DNA from: an uncultured Comamonadaceae bacterium
GTDB taxonomy: Bacteria; Pseudomonadota; Gammaproteobacteria; Burkholderiales; Burkholderiaceae
Length of the DNA stretch: 6,845 nucleotides
Assembly (NCBI GenBank): GCA_946482595.1
Contig: CAMLSD010000169.1
Location: forward strand, 1-6,845
Direction: 5' to 3'
In this document: piece after piece, positions 12 through 5,029 of the stretch
Numbering within the stretch: the first letter of the stretch is position 1
Layout: the number at the start of each line of letters is the position of its first letter
Program-made: the position numbers and the translations under genes
The notes under the pieces: generated by a model
The model's input: the letters and a program-made list of their open reading frames with translations, nothing else
Databases searched by the model: none
Told to the model about the DNA's origin: nothing

Positions 12-48
12 CTCAAGGAAACTTGGGCCGGCCCGGCGTTTCCTTGAG
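12..48 (-). terminator. Perfect hairpin overlapping the CoA-transferase stop, possible terminator
   Basis: Perfect 11-bp arms (ctcaaggaaac at 12-22 and gtttccttgag at 38-48) flank a 15-base loop that holds a further perfect palindrome, gggccggccc, at 25-34. The hairpin covers the last 11 codons and the stop of the CoA-transferase gene. No U-run follows; a second palindrome, ccccgcgggg at 2-11, comes next in the transcript. It could be a non-canonical terminator or a 3'-end stabilising stem. Terminator function is inferred; the symmetry is seen directly. Confidence 0.45.
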
Positions 49-1623
49 AGCGCTTGCGAGTCCCTCAGCCATCACGCCTTCGCGAAAGATGCGCTCGTCC
101 ATCGTGCGCAAGGCCGGCGACACGCGCACGGGGGCGCCGCAGGCGTCCAGTACGTCGCGCTGCAGGTCGATGCCGGGGGCGATCTCGGTGAGCATCAGGC
201 CATCGGCGTCCAGCACAAAGACGGCGCGCTCGGTGATGTAGGTCACCTCGCGTCCCAGGCGGTGCACATACGGGCCGTTGAAGCTCAGGTGGCCCACCTG
301 CGGCACGAGCTTCTTCACCCGGCCTTCGCGCACGATGCGCAGCCGCCCGTCGCCCGCCGCCACCTCCAGCCCGTCCGCGGTGAGCGTGCCCATGAACACC
401 ACACGGCGTGCGGTCTGCGTGATGTTGATGAAACCGCCCACGCCGGCCACCTTGGTGCCGAAACGGCTCACGTTCACATGGCCTTCGGGGCTGAACTCGG
501 CCAGCCCGAGGAAGGCGATGTCGATGCCGCCGCCGTCGTAGAAGTCGAACATCGCGGCCTGGTCGATCACCGCTTCGGGGTAGGCGCTGGCACCGAAGCT
601 GAGCAACTGCGCCGGCGTGCCGCCGATCGGGCCGGCCTCGACGGTCAGCGTGAAGCGGTCGTGACCTTCCTCGCGGGCGATGTCGCCCAGGCCGGCCGGC
701 ATGCCCACGCCCAGGTTCACGACCGGATCGTGCAGCGCCTGCAAGGCCAGGAAGGCACGTCGCTGCACGATCCGCCGCAGGTCGAGCGGCGGAGGGGCCG
801 CGGCGGCAGCATCGGCAACATGCCGGCCCTGCGCCCAGCCCTCGCTGGTGTAGGCCGGGTTGTGTGCTTCGCCAAAGGTCATCCAGTGCTCGGTGGGGTC
901 CTCGCACACCACCACATGGTCGACCAGGATGCCGGGAACGCGCACGAGGTTGGGGTCCAGCCGGCCGGCCGGCACGATGCGCTTGACCTGCGCAATCACG
1001 ATGCCGCCGCTGTTGCGTGCGGCCTGGGCCATGGCCAGCAGGTCCTGGTGGAAGGGCTCGTGCTCGGTGGTGAGGTTGCCGCGTTCGTCGGCGGTCGTGG
1101 CGCGGATCAGCGCGCAGTGCACCGGCATGGCCGGGTAGAAGAGTTGCTCCTCGCCCCCCAGCGTGACGCGCTCGACCAGCTGCTGTGTCGTGCGCGGTGT
1201 GAGTCGGCCGCCGTCGTGACGCGGGTCGACGAAGGTGTGCAGGCCGATGCGCGTGACCACACCGCTCTTGCCGCCGGCGATCGCCCGGAACAGGTGGGCG
1301 ATGACACCCTGGGGCCAGTTGTAGGCCTCGATCTCGTTGCGCTCCACCAGCTCGCCCAGCCGCGGCGCCGAGATCCAGTGGCCGCCGATCACCCGCCGCA
1401 CAAGGCCGGCATGACCGAAGTGATTGACGCCGCGGGTGGCGCGGTCGCCTTGCCCTGCCGCGTACAGCAGCGTGAGGTCGCGGGGGGCGCCATCCGCCAG
1501 GAAGCGGCGCTCGACGGCATGGGTGATGGCTTCGGCGTGGCCCGCGCCGACAAAGCCGGCGGTGGCCACGGTCCAGCCGTCCTGGATCAGGGCGGCGGCT
1601 TCAGGGGCGGTCAGGACATGCAT
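13..1623 (-). CDS. ydiF: YdiF-type acyl-CoA:acetate/3-ketoacid CoA-transferase
   Basis: This predicted 536-residue cytoplasmic family I CoA-transferase moves coenzyme A between an acyl-CoA and a free carboxylate such as acetate, a short-chain fatty acid or a 3-keto acid. It aligns by eye along its whole length with E. coli YdiF (about 531 residues). The alpha-like half is residues 1 to about 275, with the GDRA, YNWPQG and FVDPR stretches. The beta-like half is about 280 to 536, with NLGVGMPAG, VEAGPIGG and GRVKKLVP. Glu329 in VEAGPIGG corresponds to the catalytic glutamate that forms the glutamyl-CoA thioester in this family. The alpha and beta halves are fused in one chain, as is normal for YdiF. 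The ATG at 1623 gives the expected length, but only a weak GGCAGG-like ribosome binding site precedes it. The gene lies 55 bases downstream of the dadA homologue on the same strand with no terminator between them, so it is probably co-transcribed from the glycine riboswitch promoter. The substrate cannot be read from the sequence; propionate or acetate CoA-transferase are equally possible names. Confidence 0.93.
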   Translation of the reverse strand: MHVLTAPEAAALIQDGWTVATAGFVGAGHAEAITHAVERRFLADGAPRDLTLLYAAGQGDRATRGVNHFGHAGLVRRVIGGHWISAPRLGELVERNEIEAYNWPQGVIAHLFRAIAGGKSGVVTRIGLHTFVDPRHDGGRLTPRTTQQLVERVTLGGEEQLFYPAMPVHCALIRATTADERGNLTTEHEPFHQDLLAMAQAARNSGGIVIAQVKRIVPAGRLDPNLVRVPGILVDHVVVCEDPTEHWMTFGEAHNPAYTSEGWAQGRHVADAAAAAPPPLDLRRIVQRRAFLALQALHDPVVNLGVGMPAGLGDIAREEGHDRFTLTVEAGPIGGTPAQLLSFGASAYPEAVIDQAAMFDFYDGGGIDIAFLGLAEFSPEGHVNVSRFGTKVAGVGGFINITQTARRVVFMGTLTADGLEVAAGDGRLRIVREGRVKKLVPQVGHLSFNGPYVHRLGREVTYITERAVFVLDADGLMLTEIAPGIDLQRDVLDACGAPVRVSPALRTMDERIFREGVMAEGLASALKETPGRPKFP

Positions 1624-1678: not shown

Positions 1679-2968
1679 TCAGGCCGGCTGGAGCACACCC
1701 GGGCGGCCGCGTTCCATGCCGCAGAACGCGTAGTCGACCTCCGGCACCCGGCCCGAGACGATGTCGGCAATGGCCGCCGCCGACCCGCATGAGTGCGTCC
1801 AGCCCAGCGTGCCGTGGCCGGTGTTGAGAAACAGGTTGCGCACGCGGCTGCGGCCGATGTAGGGCAGGTTGGACGGTGTGGCCGGGCGCAGGCCGGTCCA
1901 GTACTGGGCATGCTGGCCGTCGGTCATCTGCGGGAACAGCTCACGCACCCGGCGCACAATGGCCTCGCAGCGCGTGAGGTTGAGGTCGGTGTTGTAGCCA
2001 TTGAGTTCTGCGGTGCCGGCGATGCGCAGCCGGTCGCCCAGCCGCGAGAACACCAGCTTGTATTCGTCGTCGGTCAGCGAGACCGAGTACGAGTGCTCGG
2101 GCGAGGTCACCGGCAGCGTGACCGAATAGCCCTTGGCCGGATAGATGCGCAGCGACACGCCCAGTTCGCGCGCCATGGCCTGGCTGAACGAGCCCATGCA
2201 CAGGACATGCGCATCGGCGCTCAGGTTCATCACCTCGCCGGCGGCGGTGGCGATGCGCACCGAGCGGATCGCATCGCCCTCGCGCTCCAGGCCCAGGATG
2301 CGCGTGTTGTAGAGAAAGCGCACGCCAGCCGCCTCGGCCAGTGCCGCCAGGCCCCGGGTGAATTTGTGCGCGTCGCCCGATTCGTCGCTGGGCGTCATGC
2401 TGCCGCCCACGATGCGATCGCGGCACTGGGCCAGTGCGGGCTCGATGGCCACGCATTCATCGGCGGTTTTCATGTCGAGCTCGCAGCCGTGCTCGCGCAT
2501 CACGCGGGCGGGCTCCTGGGCCGCGTCGAACTCGGCCTGGCTGGTGTAGAAGTGCAGGATGCCCTGTGTGAGCTGGTCGTACTGCAGGCCGGTGCGCTGG
2601 CGCAGCTCGCGCAGCGTGGCCCGGCTGTACAGGCCCAGGTTCACGATCTGGCGGATGTTGTGGCGCGTGCGCCCGGGCGTGCATTCGCGCAGGAACTGTG
2701 CGCCCCAGATCCACTGGTTGAGATCGGCGCGCAGGCGGAACAGCAAGGGTGCGTCTTCACGCATCAGCCATTTCAGCACCTTGAGCGGGGCGCCGGGGTT
2801 GGCCCAGGGTTCAGCGTGAGAGACCGAGATCTGTCCGCCATTGGCAAAACTGGTTTCCATGCCGGCGGCGGGCTGGCGGTCGATCACGGTGACCTCGTGA
2901 CCGGCCTGATGGAGGAACCATGCGGTGGTGACGCCGGTGACACCGGCACCCAGAACGATGACTTTCAT
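1679..2968 (-). CDS. dadA: DadA-type FAD-dependent D-amino acid dehydrogenase
   Basis: This predicted 429-residue flavoenzyme oxidises a D-amino acid, and possibly glycine, to the 2-oxo acid plus ammonia, passing electrons to the respiratory chain at the inner face of the membrane. E. coli DadA has 432 residues and aligns from end to end. Seen here are the N-terminal dinucleotide-binding motif GAGVTG (residues 7-12) with Asp30 ending the second strand, the METSFANGGQIS block (37-48), and the C-terminal WTGLRP and GHGTLGWT (384-391) blocks that close the FAD site. The ATG at 2968 was chosen because the motif begins six residues later, as in DadA; the frame stays open upstream to 3130 but that stretch is the riboswitch leader. 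Ribosome binding is weak (GAGAGAAAG, about 10 or more bases upstream). The gene follows a tandem glycine riboswitch and terminator, so glycine probably controls it. Deamination of glycine is inferred from that control; D-alanine or another D-amino acid remains possible. Confidence 0.93.
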   Translation of the reverse strand: MKVIVLGAGVTGVTTAWFLHQAGHEVTVIDRQPAAGMETSFANGGQISVSHAEPWANPGAPLKVLKWLMREDAPLLFRLRADLNQWIWGAQFLRECTPGRTRHNIRQIVNLGLYSRATLRELRQRTGLQYDQLTQGILHFYTSQAEFDAAQEPARVMREHGCELDMKTADECVAIEPALAQCRDRIVGGSMTPSDESGDAHKFTRGLAALAEAAGVRFLYNTRILGLEREGDAIRSVRIATAAGEVMNLSADAHVLCMGSFSQAMARELGVSLRIYPAKGYSVTLPVTSPEHSYSVSLTDDEYKLVFSRLGDRLRIAGTAELNGYNTDLNLTRCEAIVRRVRELFPQMTDGQHAQYWTGLRPATPSNLPYIGRSRVRNLFLNTGHGTLGWTHSCGSAAAIADIVSGRVPEVDYAFCGMERGRPGVLQPA

Positions 2969-3028
2969 GGAGCGCTGCTTTCTCTCGAACAGAACGTGAG
3001 ATGAACGAGCGCATGCGATCCGGACATG

Positions 3029-3063
3029 AAAAAGGGAGCGCACGCGAAACTCGCGCCGCTCCC
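3029..3063 (-). terminator. Intrinsic terminator of the glycine riboswitch expression platform
   Basis: In the transcript the arm GGGAGCG (3063-3057) pairs with CGCTCCC (3040-3034). An inner CGCGA/TCGCG stem and a short GTT loop lie between them, and UUUUU (3033-3029) follows directly. This is a classic GC-rich hairpin with a U-run. It lies immediately 3' of the second aptamer and 60 bases before the dadA start. Transcriptional attenuation is therefore the likely control mode. The 5' arm abuts P1 of the second aptamer. Confidence 0.85.
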
Positions 3064-3159
3064 GCTGTCCTTGGTACCTGAGAGATTCGGGCGGGCACCT
3101 GGCCGCCGTTGCTCCTTCGGTGGGAGGCACTGCCAGGGGCAGCCGCTCCGCTCTCCAGC
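3064..3159 (-). promoter_or_regulatory. Glycine riboswitch, second aptamer of a tandem pair
   Basis: Read on the minus strand, this segment holds the conserved glycine-aptamer elements in order: GGAGAG (3156-3151), the block CACCGAAGGAGCAA (3122-3109), CTCTCAGGTACC (3084-3073), then CAAGGACAG. A short P1 can form between GCTG (3159-3156) and CAGC (3067-3064). An internal GGAG/GGC/GCC hairpin around 3149-3122 forms the variable arm. It follows the first aptamer after a 13-base linker, the usual tandem layout. The family binds glycine and normally raises expression when glycine is high. The downstream hairpin suggests control of transcription termination ahead of dadA. Confidence 0.95.
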
Positions 3160-3172
3160 ATCGACTGGTTGT

Positions 3173-3264
3173 CAGGTTCAGTACGGGGCCTGAGCGAGTA
3201 TGGGAGGTTGCGCCTTCGGCGGCCCGCCGTCACATGTGACCGGCAGGGCTCTCTCCTGAACCTG
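3173..3264 (-). promoter_or_regulatory. Glycine riboswitch, first aptamer of a tandem pair
   Basis: A perfect 9-bp P1 forms between CAGGTTCAG (3264-3256) and CTGAACCTG (3181-3173). Inside it lie GGAGAG (3256-3251), a long arm capped by the perfect palindrome GTCACATGTGAC (3240-3229), the conserved CGCCGAAGGCGCAA block (3221-3208), and GCTCAGG (3195-3189). These match the glycine aptamer core. P1 begins almost exactly where the upstream promoter predicts the transcription start, so there is little or no 5' leader. The expected role is to sense glycine together with the second aptamer. Confidence 0.93.
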
Positions 3265-3269
3265 GACGC

Positions 3270-3299
3270 AGTGTAACGAGCCGGAATTGCCGGTGTCAA
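3270..3299 (-). promoter_or_regulatory. Sigma-70-type promoter of the riboswitch-dadA unit
   Basis: On the minus strand a perfect -35 box TTGACA (3299-3294) is followed by an 18-base spacer and a -10 box TACACT (3275-3270, four of six consensus bases). An alternative -10, TTACAC at 3276-3271, would give a 17-base spacer. The predicted start is about 3265-3262, at the first bases of aptamer P1. The exact placement upstream of the riboswitch supports it as the real promoter. Confidence 0.75.
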
Positions 3300-3337
3300 A
3301 CCCGAGCCGCCGCAAAACCGGTAGCATTTCGGGTTTG
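3297..3337. repeat. 9-bp inverted repeat overlapping the dadA-unit -35 box
   Basis: The arms caaacccga (3297-3305) and tcgggtttg (3329-3337) are perfect inverted copies with 23 bases between them. The arm centres are 32 bases apart, about three helical turns. The left arm shares three bases with the -35 box of the minus-strand promoter. It may be an operator in the divergent region, or a stem in a prfC leader if that transcript starts upstream of it. No regulator is known from the sequence. Confidence 0.4.
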
Positions 3338-3404
3338 CGCGCCGCCCGGCGCGTGCTGGCCCGACCCGCCCCGGCTGCGCCGATGCCGCGGTCAACGGCC
3401 TCCT

Positions 3405-3408
3405 GGAG
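3405..3408 (+). promoter_or_regulatory. Ribosome binding site that sets the prfC GTG start
   Basis: GGAG (within TGGAGT) lies seven bases before the GTG at 3416. Upstream in-frame ATGs at 3287 and 3383 lack a comparable site and would add N-terminal residues with no match in RF3. I saw no convincing plus-strand promoter boxes between 3300 and 3405, although a prfC promoter is expected there. Confidence 0.7.
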
Positions 3409-3415
3409 TCCTTTC

Positions 3416-5029
3416 GTGTCTTTCGCCCCTGAAACCCGGCGCCGCCGGACCTTCGCCATCATTTCCCACCCTGACGCGGGCAAGACCACGCTGACCGAAA
3501 AGCTGCTGCTGTTTTCCGGTGCGATCCACATCGCCGGCTCGGTGAAGGCGCGCAAGGCCAGCCGGCATGCCACGTCCGACTGGATGGAAATCGAGAAGCA
3601 GCGTGGCATCTCGGTGGCCAGCTCGGTGATGCAGATGCTCTATCGCGATCACGTGATCAATCTGCTCGACACCCCCGGCCACAAGGACTTCTCCGAAGAC
3701 ACCTATCGCGTGCTCACGGCCGTGGACTCGGCGCTGATGGTGATCGACGCCGCCAACGGCGTGGAAGCGCAGACCAAACGGCTGATCGAGGTCTGCCGCC
3801 AGCGTGACACACCCATCATCACCTTCGTGAACAAGATGGACCGCGAGGGCCGCGACCCGATCGCCCTGCTCGACGAGATCGAGGCCGAGCTGGGCATGCC
3901 CTGCGTGCCGATGACCTGGCCGGTCGGCCAGGGCAAGGCCTTCGGCGGCATCATCAACCTGCGCTCGCAAAACATGCGCCTGTTCAAGGCGGGTGCCGAC
4001 CGGGTCACCGATGACGAGGTGGTGCCGTTGAGCGAGGCGGCCACGCTGCGCCAGCGCTTTGGCCATGACTATGAACTGGCCGAGCAGAACATCGAGCTGC
4101 TGGGGGCCGCGGCGCCGGCCTTCAACATGGAGGACTTCCTCGCGGCACGCCAGACGCCGGTGTTTTTCGGGTCGGCCGTCAACAACTTCGGCGTGCAGGA
4201 AGTGCTGGACGCCCTGGTCGACCTGGCGCCGCCCCCCGGCCCGCGCGTGGGCCTGACCGGCAGCAGCTCGCGCACCGTGGCGCCCGACGAGGAGCAGTTC
4301 TCGGGCGTGGTCTTCAAGGTCCAGGCCAACATGGATCCGTCGCACCGCGACCGCATTGCCTTCGTGCGCGTCTATTCCGGTCGTTATGCGCAGGGCATGA
4401 AGCTCAAGGTGCAGCGCACCAGCAAGGAGCTGCGCCCCACCAGTGTGGTGACCTTCCTGTCGCAGCGACGCGAGGCGGTCGACGAGGCCTATGCGGGTGA
4501 CATCATCGGTTTCACGACCCACGGCGGCGTGCAGCTGGGCGACACCATCACCGAAGGTGAGGCGCTGCAGTACACCGGGCTGCCGTTTTTTGCGCCCGAG
4601 CTGTTCCAGGCGGTGGAACTGGCCAATCCGATGAAGAGCAAGCAGCTCCAGGCCGGGTTGATGCAGCTGGGCGAGGAGGGGGCGATCCAGGTGTTCCGGC
4701 CGCAGGACGGCGGGGCGATGCTGCTGGGCGCCGTCGGTCAGCTGCAGTTCGAGGTGGTGCAGCACCGGCTCAAGGCCGAATACGGGGTGGATGTGCGCCT
4801 GATGCCGTCGCGCTATGTCGGTGCACGCTGGATCACGGCCGACACGCCGGAGGAGCTGAAGAAGTTCACCGACGTCAACAGCGCCAAGCTGGCGCTGGAC
4901 GCTGCCGACACGCTCGCCTACCTGATGACCTCGCCGTACGACCTGAGGCTCACGCAGGAGCGGCATCCCAAGATCCACTTCCACCCGCTGCGTGAACATG
5001 CGGGGCTGAGCCTGCAGAAGGCGGCCTGA
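3416..5029 (+). CDS. prfC: Peptide chain release factor 3 (RF3)
   Basis: RF3 is a cytoplasmic translational GTPase that helps remove RF1 or RF2 from the ribosome after the finished peptide is released. The 537-residue product (E. coli RF3 has 529) aligns along its whole length. It has the P-loop HPDAGKTT (18-25), the switch I motif RGIS (63-66), DTPGH (85-89) and NKMD (139-142), so all the GTP-binding elements are present. The GTPase domain occupies about the first 280 residues. A beta-barrel domain starts near the TGSSSRTVAPDEEQFSGVVFK region, and the C-terminal domain holds EEGAIQVFRP and GAVGQLQFEVV, typical of RF3 rather than EF-G. GTG at 3416 is chosen because GGAG precedes it by seven bases and it places the RRRTFAIISHPD block as in E. 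coli. An ATG at 3383 is the alternative. The stop overlaps the start of the next gene by one base. Confidence 0.97.
   Translation: MSFAPETRRRRTFAIISHPDAGKTTLTEKLLLFSGAIHIAGSVKARKASRHATSDWMEIEKQRGISVASSVMQMLYRDHVINLLDTPGHKDFSEDTYRVLTAVDSALMVIDAANGVEAQTKRLIEVCRQRDTPIITFVNKMDREGRDPIALLDEIEAELGMPCVPMTWPVGQGKAFGGIINLRSQNMRLFKAGADRVTDDEVVPLSEAATLRQRFGHDYELAEQNIELLGAAAPAFNMEDFLAARQTPVFFGSAVNNFGVQEVLDALVDLAPPPGPRVGLTGSSSRTVAPDEEQFSGVVFKVQANMDPSHRDRIAFVRVYSGRYAQGMKLKVQRTSKELRPTSVVTFLSQRREAVDEAYAGDIIGFTTHGGVQLGDTITEGEALQYTGLPFFAPELFQAVELANPMKSKQLQAGLMQLGEEGAIQVFRPQDGGAMLLGAVGQLQFEVVQHRLKAEYGVDVRLMPSRYVGARWITADTPEELKKFTDVNSAKLALDAADTLAYLMTSPYDLRLTQERHPKIHFHPLREHAGLSLQKAA

What the first reader, a model, noticed from the sequence alone, without database searches (positions are those of the whole stretch)
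1679..3299. Tandem glycine riboswitch over a DadA-type flavoenzyme
Seen: two glycine aptamer cores, a promoter at one end and a terminator at the other, directly ahead of a dadA homologue. Known: this riboswitch class usually controls glycine cleavage (gcvT-P-H) or glycine transport genes, and DadA normally deaminates D-alanine and other D-amino acids. Inference: this homologue is a glycine-responsive deaminating enzyme, giving glyoxylate, that works as an overflow route for glycine. The same arrangement may be a conserved subgroup marker that separates glycine-type from D-alanine-type DadA proteins.
Basis: partly seen in the sequence, partly recalled or inferred. Interest (0 to 1): 0.7.

Follow-up and report, generated by a model that had tools for sequence, protein, structure and literature searches.

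The report
Glycine RNA switch controlling a flavoenzyme

Summary
Two RF00504 glycine aptamers (51.3 and 48.6 bits, cut-off 32) lie head to tail on the minus strand, 3268-3055, behind a sigma-70-like promoter; a hairpin with U5 (3063-3029) and a dadA homologue (2968-1679) follow. In a tree of 161 DadA-like proteins the riboswitch marks two separate clades: the window's clade A (40 of 41) and a distant clade R2 (13 of 14; NCBIfam NF009074). It is absent from A's ArgP-linked sister clade (0 of 42), from the Lrp-linked clade that holds E. coli DadA (0 of 17 loci) and from clade D (0 of 21). R2 carries it in Cupriavidus, Comamonas, Ideonella, Paraburkholderia, Sinorhizobium and Halomonas (8 of 8 records fetched). 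Of 13 other glycine-riboswitch places examined, 11 precede gcvT.

Most likely: glycine switches on an FAD dehydrogenase that deaminates glycine to glyoxylate, a second outlet beside glycine cleavage. Shown: RNA, gene, clade-specific link. Inferred: glycine as substrate, ON direction (my accessibility test gave no direction). E. coli DadA is a very poor glycine dehydrogenase in print, so these clades would need altered specificity; position 51 (His/Asn, not Tyr) is a candidate. I found no paper stating this link, but key supplements were unreadable.

The parts
3270..3299 (-). sigma-70-like promoter TTGACA-N18-TACACT
   Evidence: letters; a site scoring at least 8.5 close to aptamer 1 in 14 of 37 clade A leaders against 5 of 740 shuffles
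3169..3268 (-). glycine aptamer 1 (RF00504)
   Evidence: 51.3 bits, E 1.4e-8
3055..3168 (-). glycine aptamer 2 (RF00504), joined to aptamer 1 without a gap
   Evidence: 48.6 bits, E 7e-8
3029..3063 (-). candidate intrinsic terminator: hairpin 3063-3034, U5 3033-3029
   Evidence: -21.8 kcal/mol
1679..2968 (-). dadA-type FAD-dependent amino acid dehydrogenase, 429 aa
   Evidence: NF001933 D-amino acid dehydrogenase 513.1 bits (cut-off 383); PF01266 DAO 247.1 bits

Best explanation
A tandem glycine riboswitch of the ordinary class controls a DadA-type FAD dehydrogenase that has specialised on glycine (or accepts it well). When glycine builds up, both aptamers bind, the terminator after aptamer 2 is not completed, and the enzyme is made. 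It oxidises glycine to iminoacetate and so to glyoxylate and ammonium, passing electrons to the respiratory chain like E. coli DadA. It is a second glycine outlet beside the riboswitch-controlled gcvTHP operon. Shown here: the RNA, the gene under it, and the tight link of riboswitch and enzyme clade, found twice in the family. Inferred: glycine as ligand (from the canonical aptamer core), glycine as substrate, glyoxylate as product, ON direction.
For: Two Rfam-grade aptamers. Riboswitch within 700 nt upstream: clade A 39 of 40 loci plus the window, R2 13 of 14, and 0 of 42, 0 of 17, 0 of 21 and 0 of 25 in the other groups; 5 label changes on the tree against 44.9 in shuffles, 0 of 500 as low. 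Other branches carry other regulators: Lrp divergent in 17 of 17 and alanine racemase in 5 of 17 of the E. coli DadA clade, ArgP in 37 of 42 of the sister clade; neither Lrp, ArgP nor racemase next to any of the 41 clade A genes. R2 replicates outside: 5 of 6 loci over the NF009074 cut-off in a class-wide sample and 8 of 8 named plasmid or chromid records. R2 lies right behind gcvHP in 3 of 14 loci and beside glycine C-acetyltransferase and threonine dehydrogenase in Paraburkholderia. Other glycine riboswitches: 10 of 10 places precede gcvT, and 1 of 3 more. Clade A and R2 rarely share a genome: 1 shared, 4.8 expected, P 0.017, no correction for kinship. Papers, passages seen: a C. necator gene dadA6 is treated as glycine oxidase (PMC11879842; PMC12421819); malate synthase, which uses glyoxylate, is under glycine riboswitches in Pelagibacter (PMC2211319). 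Terminator-like hairpins in 12 of 40 clade A leaders against 4 of 160 shuffles; in L001 and L031 the 5' arm holds ACAGG of the aptamer 2 P1 strand, as an ON switch needs.
Against: No activity or expression data. A stricter hairpin search showed no excess (clade A 4 of 41, sister clade 4 of 42). The Shine-Dalgarno accessibility test gave no direction (7 up, 11 down of 40, p 0.64; 10-nt control blocks did no worse). In the window the terminator shares only one base (3063) with the paired part of P1, so how binding would stop it is unresolved. E. coli DadA has Km above 500 mM and kcat/Km 0.275 per M per s for glycine (PMC9436414, passages). Residues shared by A and R2 alone: 6, against 0-3 for other non-sister pairs, but only 3 (R2 with group E: 6) when all seven groups are used. 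Aptamer 1 of clade A lacks the usual GGAC after CUCAGG (0 of 37; GUAC 26, GUAU 5, other 6). I could not find out whether C. necator dadA6 belongs to A or R2.
Confidence: 0.6

Rival explanations
1. The enzyme's main substrate is another amino acid whose level follows glycine (D-serine, D-alanine, sarcosine or another N-substituted glycine), and glycine is only the signal.
For: Window protein scores as NF001933 D-amino acid dehydrogenase, 513.1 bits; E. coli DadA prefers D-serine (5.71) to glycine (0.275 per M per s; PMC9436414); nearest solved folds include sarcosine oxidases besides glycine oxidases.
Against: Glycine induction of a D-alanine-consuming enzyme would worsen glycine's known interference with peptidoglycan D-alanine (recalled); no alanine racemase near clade A (0 of 41); the link is found in two separate clades.
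Confidence: 0.25
2. The switch is OFF: glycine shuts dadA down, for instance because the enzyme has a biosynthetic or nitrogen-scavenging role.
For: OFF glycine riboswitches exist before transporters (PMC6944388, passages); in clade A it is aptamer 2 that keeps GGAC, and that paper ties a better conserved aptamer 2 to OFF-type transporter leaders.
Against: A dehydrogenase is catabolic; partner operon gcvTHP is a degradation operon; P1-overlapping hairpins in L001 and L031 favour ON. In the window the two aptamers score alike.
Confidence: 0.15
3. The aptamers are a ligand-altered variant (not glycine).
For: GUAC instead of GGAC in aptamer 1 of 26 of 37 clade A leaders; variant glycine riboswitches that do not bind glycine are known (cited in PMC6944388; details recalled).
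Against: 24 invariant core columns shared with two gcvTHP aptamers in a 21-sequence alignment; Rfam scores well over cut-off; aptamer 2 canonical.
Confidence: 0.05

Closest known systems
Tandem glycine riboswitch of gcvTHP (RF00504)
   Same: Aptamer core, tandem layout, promoter just upstream, hairpin downstream; same genomes carry one before gcvT.
   Different: Controls a DadA-type gene; aptamer 1 of clade A lacks GGAC after CUCAGG.
E. coli DadA, D-amino acid dehydrogenase
   Same: Same NCBIfam subfamily NF001933 and fold; probably the same FAD chemistry.
   Different: Other clade, Lrp and alanine racemase neighbours instead of a riboswitch; Tyr at position 51 where clade A has His.
NF009074 / PRK12409 D-amino acid dehydrogenase (clade R2)
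   Same: Also led by glycine aptamers: 13 of 14, 5 of 6, 8 of 8.
   Different: About 40% identical to the window protein; window scores 372.2 bits, under the cut-off 494.
Glycine oxidase ThiO
   Same: Nearest solved relatives by sequence (4ysh, E 1.5e-21) and by fold (7cyx, 4ysh, TM 0.67-0.68).
   Different: ThiO model 140.2 bits, cut-off 250.8; E. coli DadA scores the same on it (141.9), so the likeness says nothing about glycine.
Cupriavidus necator DadA6
   Same: DadA-named enzyme treated as glycine oxidase in a Burkholderiales bacterium (PMC11879842, PMC12421819; passages).
   Different: Its clade and leader could not be checked.

Membership tests
Glycine riboswitch RF00504 | Score over the gathering cut-off | tested here: met
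   51.3 and 48.6 bits against 32
Glycine riboswitch RF00504 | Conserved core shared with gcv aptamers | tested here: met
   24 invariant columns in 21 aptamers, two of them from gcvTHP leaders
Glycine riboswitch RF00504 | Binds glycine and changes expression | not testable with these tools
   needs in-line probing and a reporter
Glycine riboswitch RF00504 | Expression platform exclusive with P1 (direction of control) | tested here: inconclusive
NF001933 D-amino acid dehydrogenase | Score over curated cut-off | tested here: met
   513.1 against 383
Canonical DadA (D-alanine catabolism) | Clade with E. coli DadA, Lrp or alanine racemase neighbour | tested here: not met
   window in clade A; Lrp and racemase next to 0 of 41
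NF009074 equivalog | Score over curated cut-off | tested here: not met
   372.2 against 494
Glycine oxidase ThiO (TIGR02352) | Score over curated cut-off | tested here: not met
   140.2 against 250.8
Glycine dehydrogenase by activity | Oxidises glycine to glyoxylate | not testable with these tools
   enzyme assay needed

The most novel reading that the evidence does not exclude
Two separate lineages of the DadA family, both still annotated as D-amino acid dehydrogenase, are unrecognised glycine dehydrogenases: glycine-induced, feeding electrons to respiration, and together with gcvTHP forming the core of the glycine-overflow regulon of Burkholderiales. Within the family, the upstream regulator (Lrp, ArgP or a glycine riboswitch) tells the substrate.
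Probability: 0.45. Interest if true: 0.7.

Novelty: new member of a known kind. Interest (0 to 1): 0.52.

Why it matters
If right, a large set of genes annotated as D-amino acid dehydrogenase should be renamed, a second glycine outlet exists beside the glycine cleavage system, and metabolic models of Burkholderiales (including strains used for the reductive glycine pathway) need a glycine-induced leak to glyoxylate. It also offers a rare case in which regulators alone separate paralogues of one enzyme family by likely substrate, which an enzyme assay can test at once.

Tried and rejected
Operon reading: a CoA-transferase starts 55 bases after dadA, but it lies near dadA in the window only (1 of 41 clade A loci); rejected as part of the system. 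Start at GTG 3130: lies inside aptamer 2; rejected. Terminator as a general rule of the clade: strict search 4 of 41 against 4 of 42 in the control clade, looser search 12 of 40 against 4 of 160 shuffles; kept only as a candidate for the window and some relatives. Ribosome-site masking: no direction (the script then stopped with an error before its R2 summary, and 12 of the R2 leaders had been skipped for want of GGAC). Convergent residues of A and R2: weak. Fold search: nearest are glycine and sarcosine oxidases, but residues 33-58, which hold position 51, are under pLDDT 50, so the pocket was not modelled. C. necator dadA6: primers printed in PMC11879842 were looked for in 399 genomes of the family, in 26 R2 loci and in 4 genomes of one genus; no convincing match, so the link stays open. 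First count of genomes shared by A and R2 was 0; one search then showed an R2 fragment in G071, a clade A genome, so the figure given is 1. Position 52 (Ala in A and R2) is also Ala in E. coli DadA, so it is not used as a marker.

Papers: searches. 'glycine riboswitch' with 'D-amino acid dehydrogenase' or with 'Comamonadaceae' gave 0 papers; with 'dadA' 3 papers, where the word is dadantii or Dadabacteria. Passages only were seen of PMC3766115, PMC2258182, PMC2211319, PMC12452182, PMC6944388, PMC9436414, PMC5666159, PMC12421819, PMC11879842, PMC4710047, PMC12827605, PMC12593503, PMC5760752; the remaining listed papers were seen as listings. The gene lists of PMC3766115 and PMC6944388 are in supplements that could not be opened, so a prior listing of this link (RegPrecise too) cannot be excluded.

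Full report
What is there. On the minus strand of the window a promoter-like site (3299-3270) is followed by two glycine aptamers without a gap between them (3268-3169 and 3168-3055, 51.3 and 48.6 bits against a gathering score of 32), a strong hairpin with five U (3063-3029, -21.8 kcal/mol) and a 429-codon gene (2968-1679) that NCBIfam names D-amino acid dehydrogenase (NF001933, 513.1 bits, cut-off 383). prfC (3416-5029, plus) is divergent. The window belongs to no genome held; the nearest named relatives of the protein are a Burkholderiaceae MAG (83%) and Aquincola (82%).

Is it more than a single case? All 8 Burkholderiales loci with at least 73% identity found in genome contigs have RF00504 matches directly upstream; Oxalicibacterium (58%) and Pseudomonas gingeri (36%) have none. 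In 100 genomes of the Aquincola family, 92 have a glycine riboswitch and 90 a DadA-like protein at E 1e-60 (both match lists were capped). I fetched 150 of the listed DadA-like loci, scanned them with a covariance model built from 21 aptamers and built a tree of 161 proteins: 159 loci (L033 dropped as the same gene as L002), the window and E. coli DadA.

Result. 53 of the 161 carry a riboswitch within 700 nt. They fall in two places of the tree: clade A, 40 of 41 including the window (the exception is L061), and clade R2, 13 of 14 (the exception is L133). None is found in A's sister clade (0 of 42), in the clade of E. coli DadA (0 of 17 loci), in clade D (0 of 21) or in 25 unplaced or more distant loci, among them L007 and L063, a contig-end locus with 414 bases of leader. 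The label needs 5 changes against 44.9 in shuffles (0 of 500 as low). A motif count that does not depend on the model agrees: two or more CCGAAGG cores in the 450-nt leader in 40 of 41 A; one or more in 13 of 14 R2; 0 of 42, 0 of 17 and 0 of 21 in the others. Caution: this is a quick tree; the sister clade nests inside the riboswitch-bearing lineages with SH-aLRT 86-89, and R2 sits on a long branch, so loss in the sister clade is as possible as separate gains.

Regulators differ by clade (neighbours within 4.5 kb). E. coli DadA clade: Lrp divergent in 17 of 17, alanine racemase in 5 of 17. Sister clade: ArgP in 37 of 42 (named by NCBIfam for two of them), LysE-type exporter in 10 of 42. Clade A: none of Lrp, ArgP, racemase, Gcv or RidA in 41. 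R2: gcvP and gcvH directly upstream in 3 of 14.

Beyond the family. In 274 genomes of the class only the Aquincola genome has a close clade A protein; the four next-best hits (48-50% identity) have no aptamer. R2 (over the NF009074 cut-off) occurs in 6 of 274, with an RF00504 match upstream in 5 of 6; of 22 lower-scoring DadA-like loci none has one, though four of those loci are cut short. In the plasmid collection 723 records match R2; I fetched 8 of the best 19, chosen for variety, and 8 of 8 have an aptamer over the gathering score just upstream: Cupriavidus metallidurans, C. oxalaticus, C. campinensis, Comamonas testosteroni, Ideonella dechloratans, Sinorhizobium meliloti, Halomonas sp., Paraburkholderia phenoliruptrix. 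In the last, glycine C-acetyltransferase and threonine dehydrogenase, which make glycine from threonine, lie next to it.

Rest of the regulon. Ten other riboswitch places in these genomes all precede gcvT (10 of 10). Three more fetched: gcvTHP (L257), a Peripla_BP_6 binding protein (L254) and another DadA-like gene of the Xenophilus genome (L255, 43% identical to clade A L046, not in the tree). Genomes with A: 32 of 100; with R2: 15 of 100; shared 1 (G071, an R2 fragment), expected 4.8, P 0.017 without correction for kinship (an earlier count of 14 and 0 missed the fragment).

How it works. Aptamer cores are canonical: 24 columns are invariant in 21 aptamers, two of them from gcvTHP leaders. 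Aptamer 1 of clade A departs in the stretch after CUCAGG: GUAC 26, GUAU 5, other 6, GGAC 0 of 37. For the switch itself the evidence is mixed. Hairpin plus U-run in 12 of 40 A and 3 of 13 R2 leaders against 4 of 160 and 0 of 52 shuffles, but a stricter search found no excess over the control clades. In L001 and L031 the hairpin's 5' arm contains the P1 strand of aptamer 2, the layout of an ON switch; in the window the two share one base only (position 3063). Ribosome-site accessibility showed no trend (7 up, 11 down of 40, p 0.64). I hold ON as likely from metabolic logic and from the published rule that glycine-degrading genes are switched on (PMC6944388, passages), not as shown.

Is the substrate glycine? 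Arguments for: regulation, and the company of gcv, kbl and tdh. Papers (passages only) treat C. necator dadA6 as a glycine oxidase (PMC11879842) that contributes to formate assimilation (PMC12421819); I could not tell whether it belongs to A or R2. Argument against taking it for granted: E. coli DadA has Km above 500 mM and kcat/Km 0.275 per M per s for glycine, lower than 5.71 for D-serine (PMC9436414). So these clades must differ in the active site if glycine is the substrate. Position 51 is His in 41 of 41 A and Asn in 14 of 14 R2, while Tyr fills it in 18 of 18, 21 of 21, 9 of 9 and 11 of 11 of four other groups, and Phe or Tyr (20 each of 42) in the sister clade. That it lies near the substrate, at the level of residue 54 of Bacillus glycine oxidase, is my reading of the alignment with recalled numbering; the model has low confidence there. 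The number of residues shared by A and R2 alone is 6, against 0-3 for other non-sister pairs, but 3 under a stricter count in which R2 and group E share 6. Fold and sequence neighbours are glycine oxidases, but the ThiO model scores E. coli DadA just as high, so this does not bear on glycine.

Known or new. None of the passages or listings that I saw names dadA under a glycine riboswitch. PMC3766115 speaks of twelve glycine-metabolism genes under this riboswitch and lists them in a supplement that I could not open. The class of RNA and the enzyme family are both known; the regulated clades, and the sorting of DadA paralogues by regulator, are what may be new.

Noticed in passing
window 13-1623 (-): CoA-transferase family protein (PF01144; FadX model 334 bits, below its cut-off 750) starts 55 bases after dadA; found near dadA in no other clade A locus.
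   Followed up: partly
L254:2902-2994 (+), gene 3163-4305: A glycine aptamer (68.8 bits) precedes a Peripla_BP_6 periplasmic binding protein, a third glycine-riboswitch place in that genome (G017); perhaps a glycine or amino acid uptake system.
   Followed up: partly
L255:1446-1554 (+), gene 1636-2883: Second aptamer-led DadA-like gene in the Xenophilus genome of L008, 43% identical to clade A L046; not placed on the tree.
   Followed up: partly
L047 and L055 (genome G019): One genome carries two clade A dadA genes, each with its own riboswitch.
   Followed up: no
L061 (G040), L133 (G083): Clade A and R2 members without any aptamer in the fetched stretch: natural losses that could serve as controls.
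   Followed up: no
L065-L103 group: The sister clade of DadA-like proteins is divergent from argP in 37 of 42 loci, 10 with a LysE-type exporter: possibly D-arginine or D-lysine dehydrogenases.
   Followed up: partly
L247:2378-2483 (-): SAM-I/IV riboswitch (60 bits) close to the glycine-riboswitch dadA locus on Paraburkholderia pSYMBR3459.
   Followed up: no
L200:145-208 (-): nhaA-I RNA (46.2 bits) in the same locus as an R2 dadA.
   Followed up: no
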